Source: Clostridiales bacterium
GTDB taxonomy: Bacteria > Bacillota > Clostridia > Clostridiales > Caloramatoraceae
Length of the DNA stretch: 32,575 nt
Direction: 5' to 3'
Assembly (NCBI GenBank): GCA_029240935.1
Contig: JARDZI010000004.1
Location: 1 to 32,575 of the forward strand
Shown here: piece by piece, positions 6,592 to 16,775 of the stretch
Layout of the letters: each line of letters starts with the position of its first letter
Position numbering within the stretch: position 1 is the first letter of the stretch
Made by a program: the position numbers and the translations under genes
Notes under the pieces: model-generated
What the model was told of the DNA's origin: nothing
The model's database searches: none
Seen by the model: the letters and a program-made list of their open reading frames with translations, nothing else

Positions 6592-6686
6592 GTAGGGGCG
6601 AACAGTGTTCGCCCGTTATTGCGCATCATCATATAATGTAAAGCCTAGAAACAGAGTACATTCGGGCGAACACTGTTCGCCCCTAC
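6592..6686. repeat. GTAGGGGCGAACA...TGTTCGCCCCTAC hairpin repeat, copy 1
   Basis: Terminal inverted arms, each arm itself palindromic (GGGCGAACAGTGTTCGCCC). Confidence 0.9.
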
Positions 6687-6720
6687 GTTTGGGGCTGTCC
6701 ATTTTCTCATAGCCTTGTTT

Positions 6721-12569: not shown

Positions 12570-12665
12570 GTAGGGGCGAACAGCGTTCACCCGTTTTTGC
12601 GTATCATCAATTAAGGGTTAACTATAATTGATAGTGGGTTGCGGGCGAACACTGTTCGCCCCTAC
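12570..12665. repeat. GTAGGGGCGAACA...TGTTCGCCCCTAC hairpin repeat, copy 2 (ilvC-leuC gap)
   Basis: Inverted arms as in copy 1. Confidence 0.88.
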
Positions 12666-12713: not shown

Positions 12714-13715
12714 TTATTTCTTTGGAATCCAGGACATCATGCCCCTTAGCTCCTTACCTACTTTTTCTATTTGGTGCTCTGATTCTATTCTTCTTTTTGC
12801 ATTGAAGCCTGGTCTTCCTACTTGATTCTCAAGAAGCCAGTTTTTAGCGAAGGTTCCATCTTGAATTTCACCAAGTACCTTCTTCATTTCCTTTCTTGTA
12901 TCATCTGTTATAATTCTCTTTCCAATGCTGTAGTCGCCATATTCTGCAGTGTCGCTTATAGAGTATCTCATAAATGCAAATCCACCTTGATTAATAAGGT
13001 CAACTATAAGCTTCATTTCATGACAGCATTCAAAATATGCATTTTCTGGTGCATAGCCTGCTTCAACAAGTGTGTCAAAGCCTGCCTTCATAAGTTCTGT
13101 AACTCCTCCACAAAGAACAGCCTGCTCTCCAAAAAGGTCAGTTTCTGTTTCGTCCTTGAAGGTTGTTTCTAAAACTCCTGCTCTTGATCCACCAATTCCC
13201 TTGGCATAGGCAAGTGCATATTCCTTTGCCATACCTGAATAATCTTGATAAACTGCTATAAGACATGGCACACCTTTTCCTTCTTGGAATTGACTACGAA
13301 CTGTATGTCCTGGACCCTTTGGAGCTACCATGAACACATCGCAATTTTGAGGTGGTACGATTTGACCATAATGAATGTTGAAGCCATGGGCAAACACCAA
13401 AGAGGCTTCAGGTTTAAGATTTGGTTCTACAGATTCTCTGTACAACTTTGCTTGCTTTTCATCAGGAACTAGTATCATTACAAAGTCTGCTTTTGATACA
13501 GCCTCCCCAGTTTCATATACAGTCAATCCCTGCTCCTCTGCTAATTTCCACGACCTGCTGCCTTTATAAAGCCCAACACATACGTCAACACCGCTTTCCT
13601 TTAAATTCAAGGCGTGTGCATGTCCCTGGCTACCATAGCCTATAACAGCAACCTTTTTTTCTTTAAGCAATTCTAGATTTGCATCACCATCATAATACAT
13701 TTTTACATTTGACAT
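12714..13715 (-). CDS. ilvC: Ketol-acid reductoisomerase
   Basis: [42 protein letters not shown]...; start 13715 with GGAGGA RBS; track extension crosses a repeat and is spurious. Confidence 0.96.
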
Positions 13716-13760
13716 AATTAAATTCCTCCATTCAAATTTTATATATTTTTTGAATTCTCC

Positions 13761-13856
13761 GTAGGGGCGAACAATGTTCGCCCGTTTTTTGGCATTATCA
13801 ATTAGGTGTAAATCTAAATGCTGGGTGGGTTGCGGGCGAACACTGTTCGCCCCTAC
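13761..13856. repeat. GTAGGGGCGAACA...TGTTCGCCCCTAC hairpin repeat, copy 3 (ilvC 5' region)
   Basis: Inverted arms as in copy 1. Confidence 0.88.
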
Positions 13857-13933
13857 GGTTATACGGGTTATACGGGTTATATGAGCTGTAAATATCCGCT
13901 TTAGCGCTTTATTAGAGTAAATCGTAAGTGATA

Positions 13934-13967
13934 TAAAAAAAGAATACTTCCCATTGGGGGAGTATCC
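13934..13967 (-). terminator. Candidate rho-independent terminator/attenuator upstream of ilvC
   Basis: Minus strand: AAAGGATACTCCCccaatGGGAAGTATTCTTTTTTT. Confidence 0.7.
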
Positions 13968-14041
13968 TTTGAAACCCAAATTTATATAAACTCATTTTAT
14001 ATAACGGCATTGCCGCACATCTAAATATTTTAGGTGTGTGA

Positions 14042-14284
14042 CTAGGGTAGAGTAAGGCAGGCCCTTTTAGTTAGGCCAGCTTGAGGTGCAGCAAAGCTAA
14101 ACCTTACTCTATTCCTCGTCATCTTTAGCATTATTAATTTTGGTCTGAAGTGGCTAATAATAATTATTGCCACGATAATAATGACGCTAAGGAGTAGGAG
14201 GTTGAGTATTAGGCCTAGGCTAATTATAATATTATTTAGTTTTTGAATATTTATTGGAATATAACTACCCAAAAGATTAAACAT
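14042..14284 (-). CDS. Leu/Ile/Val-rich 80-aa leader ORF (candidate BCAA leader peptide; alternatively a small membrane protein)
   Basis: cgaggtg RBS 5 nt before ATG 14284; residues 19-43 IIISLGLILNLLLLSVIIIVAIIII; located between the divergent promoter region and the ilvC operon. Confidence 0.65.
   Translation of the reverse strand: MFNLLGSYIPINIQKLNNIIISLGLILNLLLLSVIIIVAIIIISHFRPKLIMLKMTRNRVRFSFAAPQAGLTKRACLTLP
14048..14111 (-). promoter_or_regulatory. Structured RNA element (possible three-way junction) at the 3' end of the leader ORF
   Basis: 10-bp closing stem TAGAGTAAGG/CCTTACTCTA enclosing AGCTT...AAGCT and GGCC...GGCC mini-hairpins. Confidence 0.55.
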
Positions 14285-14329
14285 AATTGCACCTCGTATG
14301 TATTTTTGAATTTTTAAATATTAAAATCT

Positions 14330-14358
14330 AGGTTAACAGGTATTTTTTATAAAGTCAA
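14330..14358 (-). promoter_or_regulatory. Candidate promoter for leader-ilvC operon
   Basis: Minus strand TTGACT-17 nt-TAACCT with TGT directly upstream of the -10. Confidence 0.4.
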
Positions 14359-16239: not shown

Positions 16240-16553
16240 AAAAGGAATAATAAATAATATTTTAAAAAATAAAAAATCACCTATTGACAAGTAATGAAAT
16301 GGGAAGTAATATAAATATTAAAATTCGAAAAATTCTAAAAGTTGAAAGATGATGATAGGGAACAGTAAAATGGTTAATAGCTTTCACAGAGAATGGGATG
16401 CAGAAATGTCTTGAAGAGTTGATTTTATAAATTAGACATGCAAGCAATGCTGAAAACCCACAGGCTTTATCATTTGAAACTCACCCTTGAATTGCAGGTT
16501 GAAAAAATTATTTATTGAAAAAACTATATATAACATATTAAAAAATTCCTATT

Positions 16554-16618
16554 GTAGTGGCAGGCTTCCACGCCTGCAGAAGTCAATTTCAAGCAGAAGC
16601 AGGTCAACCTGCCACTAC
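16554..16618. repeat. GTAGTGGCAGGC...CCTGCCACTAC hairpin repeat inserted within the T-box leader
   Basis: Inverted terminal arms GTAGTGGCAGG/CCTGCCACTAC; matches the family at 7674-7737. Confidence 0.85.
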
Positions 16619-16734
16619 ATATGGAATGTGATTTTATTATGGAAATATGTTATAGTCCTAGATAATAATTTTAGTAAGCTTTGCCGGTGTATTGCCGTTA
16701 TTTAAATTGAGTTATAAATTTGGATGGTACCGCG

Positions 16735-16775
16735 AACAGATTCCGCTCCATGGGTTGGGCAGAATCTGTTTTTTT
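16735..16775 (+). terminator. T-box terminator
   Basis: AACAGATTCcgctccatgggttgggcaGAATCTGTTTTTTT. Confidence 0.85.

What the first reader, a model, noticed from the sequence alone, without database searches (positions are those of the whole stretch)
13934..14284. Candidate BCAA transcription attenuator: Leu/Ile/Val-codon-saturated leader ORF with hairpins and terminator before ilvC
Seen: minus-strand ORF (14284-14042) with a good RBS encodes a 25-residue run IIISLGLILNLLLLSVIIIVAIIII (14230-14156; 20 of 25 residues are Ile, Leu or Val). All seven Leu codons in the run are CTN (cta, cta, ctc, ctc, cta, ctc, ctt) with no TTA/TTG, although TTA is expected to be common in an AT-rich genome; the Val codons are gtc and gtg. 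Downstream come a 10-bp-closed structure spanning the ORF's 3' end, further hairpins, and a U-tract terminator (13967-13934), then ilvC. Established: leader-peptide attenuation (ilvL/leuL type) is classic in Enterobacteria, while Clostridia mostly use T-boxes for these genes. Inference: ribosome-stalling attenuation of ilvC-leuCDB-ilvBE. Competing explanation: a small single-TM membrane protein, whose hydrophobic segment would also be rich in Ile, Leu and Val.
Basis: partly seen in the sequence, partly recalled or inferred. Interest (0 to 1): 0.78.

Follow-up and report, generated by a model that had tools for sequence, protein, structure and literature searches.

The report
Decayed T-box with BCAA leader ORF
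The RNA stretch in front of this bacterium's ilvC (branched-chain amino acid) operon is a broken-down T-box, a tRNA-sensing switch that has lost its tRNA-reading parts, and a short leucine/isoleucine/valine-rich reading frame in front of it has probably taken over as the amino-acid sensor, which would make it a rare snapshot of one gene switch replacing another.

Summary
Minus-strand ORF 14284-14042 has a good Shine-Dalgarno site, 20 of 25 residues Ile/Leu/Val (0 of 5000 shuffles), strong hairpins and a U-tract terminator before ilvC. Tools add two things. (1) The leader's 3' half (about 14028-13974) is homologous to T-box RNAs (z about 11). Of 24 other ilvC-first loci in the order, 20 carry a T-box there, and this genome's own leuA has one. 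Here the TGGTACCGCG core and recognisable Stem I sensing motifs are gone, while stem III, linker and terminator persist. (2) Six of seven Leu codons in the run are the rare CTA/CTC (17% of Leu codons; p about 1e-4); leaders of apparent classical attenuators before spirochaete ilvN-ilvC also favour CTA. Best reading: a T-box relic whose terminator is now controlled by ribosome stalling on a new BCAA (mainly Leu) leader peptide. T-box origin is near certain; peptide function is likely but unproven: folding shows no antiterminator for any ribosome position, and the peptide has no relative in the collections searched. Leader peptides replacing T-boxes in Firmicutes are known (S. aureus ilvD; Bacillus hisS paralogues), so this is a variant with a visible relic, not a new kind.

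The parts
14330..14358 (-). Possible promoter TTGACT-17-TAACCT for the ilvC leader transcript (inference; weak -10)
   Evidence: Read from the sequence; not listed by the consensus scan
14290..14295 (-). Shine-Dalgarno GAGGTG, 5 nt before the ATG of the leader ORF
   Evidence: Sequence
14042..14284 (-). Leader ORF, 80 aa, MFNLLGSYIPINIQKLNNIIISLGLILNLLLLSVIIIVAIIIISHFRPK...
   Evidence: 0 of 5000 shuffles give such an ILV run; no homologue
14156..14230 (-). 25-codon Ile/Leu/Val run; Leu cluster 14218-14189 is CTA CTA CTC CTC CTA CTC CTT
   Evidence: rare CTA/CTC 6 of 7 against 17% in genes and 15% in TM-like segments
14039..14121 (-). Stem I-like hairpin (UGAC/GUCA, AGG/CCU, UAGAGUAAGGU/GCCUUACUCUA) in the place of T-box Stem I; its 5' strand can pair instead with the Leu-codon stretch
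   Evidence: sequence similarity only to own leuA T-box, p = 0.005 as a selected pair, not significant over all references
13974..14028 (-). T-box relic: 3' arm of stem III, CGGC..GCCG hairpin, TGCCGTTATATAAAATGAG linker, AAATTTGGGT; the TGGTACCGCG core that should follow is missing
   Evidence: z = 10.9, 0 of 400; alignment; 0 of 5000 against L145; above all 214 control tiles; nhmmer 14026-13974
13934..13967 (-). Intrinsic terminator GGAUACUCCCCCAAUGGGAAGUAUUC + U7
   Evidence: -11.3 kcal/mol; resembles T-box terminators, p = 0.0025
12714..13715 (-). ilvC, first gene of ilvC-leuC-leuD-leuB-ilvB-ilvE
16343..16753 (+). T-box before leuA (specifier read as CUC, Leu), 51.7 bits, used as own-genome reference

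Best explanation
The ilvC leader descends from a T-box, probably Leu-specific, that has lost its tRNA-reading parts (the UGGN/ACCGCG acceptor-binding element and recognisable specifier-loop and apical Stem I motifs) but kept the stem III, linker and terminator chassis. A translated leader ORF upstream now most likely senses charged Leu tRNA (also Ile and Val). With amino acids plentiful the ribosome runs through and the terminator at 13967-13935 stops transcription; when Leu is scarce the ribosome stalls on the CTA/CTC cluster, the RNA ahead refolds, and transcription continues into ilvC-leuCDB-ilvBE. Shown: T-box homology, loss of the core, terminator, ORF and its codon bias. Inferred: translation, stalling and antitermination. 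No antiterminator was identified.
For: T-box homology of 14028-13974 with the core absent; 20 of 24 other ilvC-first loci of the order have a T-box there, confirmed by Rfam for L145, L148, L149; own leuA has a T-box. ORF with SD and ILV run not due to chance, denser than TM segments of the window. Rare CTA/CTC Leu codons, as in spirochaete leaders (CTA 20 of 61 against 6 of 241 in their ilvC genes). Terminator kept.
Against: No ribosome position changes terminator formation in equilibrium folding. The ILV run lies mid-ORF, 38 codons before the stop, unlike short classical leaders. No relative of the peptide, so no conservation evidence. One fragmented genome only. The C-terminal flank of the run is basic, which also fits a small single-TM protein.
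Confidence: 0.55

Rival explanations
1. Decaying T-box with no working sensor. The leader is a relic in progress; the terminator gives constant partial attenuation, expression is set by the promoter or a repressor, and the ORF is incidental or weakly used.
For: Core lost; no antiterminator found; same-family L147 keeps only a T-box-like terminator before ilvC, so T-boxes do decay at this locus.
Against: The ILV run with SD is not expected by chance and has a codon bias that relics should not have; an intact terminator with no relief would silence a biosynthetic operon.
Confidence: 0.22
2. The ORF is a small single-pass membrane protein, expressed from the ilvC leader, unrelated to attenuation.
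For: 25-residue hydrophobic run followed by a basic segment, the usual shape of a small TM protein.
Against: No homologue in 114 genomes of the order, phages, plasmids or viral contigs, and no Pfam family; rare Leu codons differ from TM segments of the window (15% CTA/CTC against 6 of 7, p = 8e-5); the 3' third of the ORF lies in the Stem I-like hairpin.
Confidence: 0.13
3. A still working but divergent T-box that reads tRNA by a non-standard bulge.
For: Module order Stem I-like, stem III, linker, terminator is kept; a weak UUGGG/CCCAA helix sits where the T-box antiterminator would be.
Against: TGGNACCGCG absent; no T-box or other riboswitch match even at E 10; the place of the specifier is closed into a continuous helix.
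Confidence: 0.1

Closest known systems
Staphylococcus aureus ilvD leader with leucine-rich attenuator peptide (Kaiser et al. 2018, PMC5794164)
   Same: Firmicute ilv operon; Ile/Leu-rich leader ORF with SD followed by a terminator; leader that loosely resembles a T-box but lacks Stem I motifs
   Different: 26-aa peptide conserved across staphylococci and supported by mutants; here 80 codons, one genome, a statistically clear T-box relic, no experiment
Leu-specific T-boxes before ilv/leu operons (B. subtilis ilv-leu; here L145, L148, L149 and own leuA)
   Same: Homologous stem III, linker and terminator at the same place before ilvC
   Different: Acceptor-binding core and Stem I sensing motifs lost; added leader ORF
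Enterobacterial ilvL/leuL attenuators and Corynebacterium ilvB-II uORF (PMC10272879)
   Same: BCAA codon run in a leader ORF before ilv genes and a terminator; rare Leu codons
   Different: No identified antiterminator here; run is far from the stop codon; T-box ancestry
Bacillus hisS*/hisZ histidine leader peptides replacing a T-box (Naville and Gautheret 2010, PMC2965389)
   Same: Switch of sensing system in a Firmicute from T-box to leader peptide
   Different: Different amino acid and genes; no T-box relic within the leader-peptide element is described in the passages I read
B. subtilis rtpA (anti-TRAP) leader (from memory, not checked here)
   Same: T-box and amino-acid-specific leader ORF in one transcript
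   Different: There the T-box works and the leader peptide controls translation; here the T-box has lost its sensing parts

Membership tests
T-box (RF00230) | Conserved T-box sequence TGGNACCGCG in the antiterminator | tested here: not met
   Absent with one mismatch allowed; sequence reads GGG|TTTCAAAGG
T-box (RF00230) | Covariance model match | tested here: not met
   No T-box match up to E 10; own leuA T-box does match
T-box (RF00230) | Stem I with specifier loop and apical AG-bulge/distal-loop motifs | tested here: not met
   A hairpin is in the place of Stem I but continuous pairing closes the specifier region; no significant sequence similarity over all references
T-box (RF00230) | Common ancestry of the 3' chassis (stem III, linker, terminator) | tested here: met
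BCAA leader-peptide transcription attenuator | Short ORF with SD in the leader of a BCAA operon | tested here: met
BCAA leader-peptide transcription attenuator | Run of regulatory-amino-acid codons beyond chance | tested here: met
   codon bias
BCAA leader-peptide transcription attenuator | Intrinsic terminator between the ORF and the first structural gene | tested here: met
BCAA leader-peptide transcription attenuator | Antiterminator mutually exclusive with the terminator and governed by ribosome position | tested here: inconclusive
   Not found in equilibrium folds; the Leu-codon stretch and the Stem I-like hairpin are alternatives but neither is shown to reach the terminator
BCAA leader-peptide transcription attenuator | Codon run conserved while the rest of the peptide diverges | not testable with these tools
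   No other genome of the genus held; no peptide relatives
BCAA leader-peptide transcription attenuator | Amino-acid-dependent read-through | not testable with these tools
   Needs Term-seq or reporters

The most novel reading that the evidence does not exclude
A T-box caught in replacement: the old RNA keeps its chassis and terminator as expression platform, while ribosome stalling on a new BCAA leader ORF, reading through the former Stem I, replaces direct tRNA binding as the sensor of the same tRNA pool.
Probability: 0.45. Interest if true: 0.65.

Novelty: new variant of a known kind. Interest (0 to 1): 0.5.

Why it matters
T-boxes and leader peptides control the same genes in different bacteria, and swaps between them are inferred mostly from distribution. 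A leader with a clear T-box relic behind a BCAA leader ORF would show one route: the terminator chassis is kept and only the sensor changes. It also shows that covariance-model searches miss such leaders: none of the 4227 Rfam families reports it.

Tried and rejected
Known riboswitches (including ppGpp types): no Rfam match. Peptide relatives in phages, plasmids, viral contigs and 114 genomes of the order: none credible; hits at E 3e-4 to 1 look like hydrophobic-composition matches, several with internal stops. Leader as a repeat element: unique in its genome, unlike the inverted-repeat element between terminator and ilvC. Leader peptides in other ilvC-first loci of the order: none comparable. 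Antiterminator by sliding the ribosome edge: none. Stem I homology over 15 references: not significant; only against own leuA p = 0.005.

Full report
What is there. The window is contig C53 of a fragmented 3.9-Mb genome, 82.7% complete with 6.3% contamination, the only genome of its genus found here; its closest ilvC relatives by name are Clostridium and other Clostridia. ilvC starts a minus-strand operon ilvC-leuCDB-ilvB-ilvE, divergent from ilvD (gene names from the translations). Between them lies a leader with an 80-codon ORF (14284-14042), SD GAGGTG, strong hairpins and a terminator at 13967-13935. The ILV run (20 of 25) is not a chance product (0 of 5000 shuffles) and is denser than any other protein segment in the window (17 of 25 at most).

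The codon bias. 'All CTN' is only mildly unusual, because CTN makes up 60% of Leu codons in the window's genes. CTA plus CTC make up 17%, yet 6 of 7 Leu codons in the run and 10 of 15 in the ORF (p = 1.4e-4 and 2.6e-5). Transmembrane-like segments of the same window have 15%. While surveying ilvC orthologues I met short ILV-rich ORFs upstream of ilvN-ilvC in contigs mostly labelled Spirochaetes, most of them followed by CCACGG/CCGTGG-type pairing and many by a GC-rich hairpin with a T-tract; these look like classical attenuators. Their Leu codons are 20 of 61 CTA, against 6 of 241 in the adjacent ilvC genes (summed). So rare CTA codons mark such leaders, and the window ORF shares the mark.

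The T-box relic. The 3' half of the leader (14028-13974) aligns with T-box RNAs from stem III through the CGGC..GCCG hairpin and the TGCCGTTATATAAA-TGAG linker to AAATTTGGGT, and stops exactly where TGGTACCGCG should follow. Against 15 T-box references the mean score is 10.9 s.d. above shuffles. Against L145 alone 0 of 5000 shuffles reach it, and all 214 control tiles from other intergenic stretches of the window score lower on the mean of eight references; two weaker single references were reached by 42 and 265 of 5000. The terminator also resembles T-box terminators (p = 0.0025). The upstream hairpin folds in the place of Stem I, but its sequence supports homology only against this genome's own leuA T-box (p = 0.005 as a selected pair). 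No T-box model match is obtained even at E 10.

Context. Among 25 loci of the order with ilvC first (the window included), 20 have a T-box core before ilvC; the five without are the window, L146, L147, L211 and L214, and only the window has a strongly BCAA-rich ORF with SD there. L147, of the same family, keeps only a T-box-like terminator. T-boxes are common in this genome: 29 matches, 26 above the Rfam cut-off, before genes that I read as leuS, valS, an ilvB paralogue and leuA among others. So the T-box system as such is not lost; the ilvC copy is.

How it probably works. The T-box lost its tRNA-contacting parts but the terminator is kept, so some other antitermination input is expected. The BCAA ORF is the obvious candidate: stalling at 14218-14189 on scarce Leu-tRNA would keep the Leu-codon strand from pairing with the 5' strand of the Stem I-like hairpin, so that this hairpin could form. 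How this reaches the terminator is not shown. In equilibrium folding the terminator forms equally for every ribosome edge tested, and the only competing helix is a weak UUGGG/CCCAA pairing in the T-box antiterminator position. In S. aureus ilvD the terminator stem also stays intact in the proposed antiterminated fold, where the U-tract is sequestered instead (PMC5794164), so this absence is a gap rather than a refutation.

Against what is known. BCAA leader peptides are known in enterobacteria, Corynebacterium, probably Leptospira and others (PMC10272879) and in S. aureus, whose leader 'loosely' resembles a T-box. Replacement of T-boxes by leader peptides in Firmicutes was stated by Naville and Gautheret (PMC2965389). 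What is added here is a statistically clear T-box relic joined to a BCAA leader ORF in one leader. Literature coverage is limited to the open papers searched.

Verdict. Observation confirmed; interpretation partly supported. T-box ancestry about 0.95, a functional BCAA leader peptide about 0.55. New variant of a known kind, interest 0.5.

Noticed in passing
L070, L068, L072, L078, L080, L079, L085, L050, L087, about 620-920 nt upstream of ilvC: Short ILV-rich leader ORFs (17-82 aa) before ilvN-ilvC in contigs mostly labelled Spirochaetes, most followed by CCACGG/CCGTGG-type pairing and many by a terminator; no Rfam family matches at gathering threshold. Look like classical BCAA attenuators rich in CTA.
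   Followed up: partly
16343-16753 (+): The leuA T-box (CUC specifier by my reading) is stretched by an inverted-repeat element (about 16550-16625; 48 matches in this genome) between Stem I and the antiterminator, so it scores only 51.7 bits.
   Followed up: partly
13750-13865: Inverted-repeat element with GGGGCGAACA.TGTTCGCCCC ends between the ilvC terminator and the ilvC start; 100 matches listed in this genome, also at 12570-12665 and 6592-6690.
   Followed up: partly
L147 (same family), 0-200 nt upstream of ilvC: ilvC leader reduced to a terminator that resembles the T-box terminator of L145, with an intact T-box on the opposite strand for the divergent gene.
   Followed up: partly
L148, L149, L158, L211, L214: Tandem T-boxes: before ilvC in L148, L149 and L158, elsewhere in the locus in L211 and L214.
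   Followed up: no
L146, about 200-60 nt upstream of ilvC: ilvC leader without T-box, Rfam match or ILV-rich ORF but with a terminator-like hairpin; its regulator is unknown.
   Followed up: no
14202-14230 (+): Promoter-like TTGAGT-17-TATAAT on the opposite strand inside the leader ORF; could give an antisense RNA over its start, but such sites are as frequent in shuffles.
   Followed up: no
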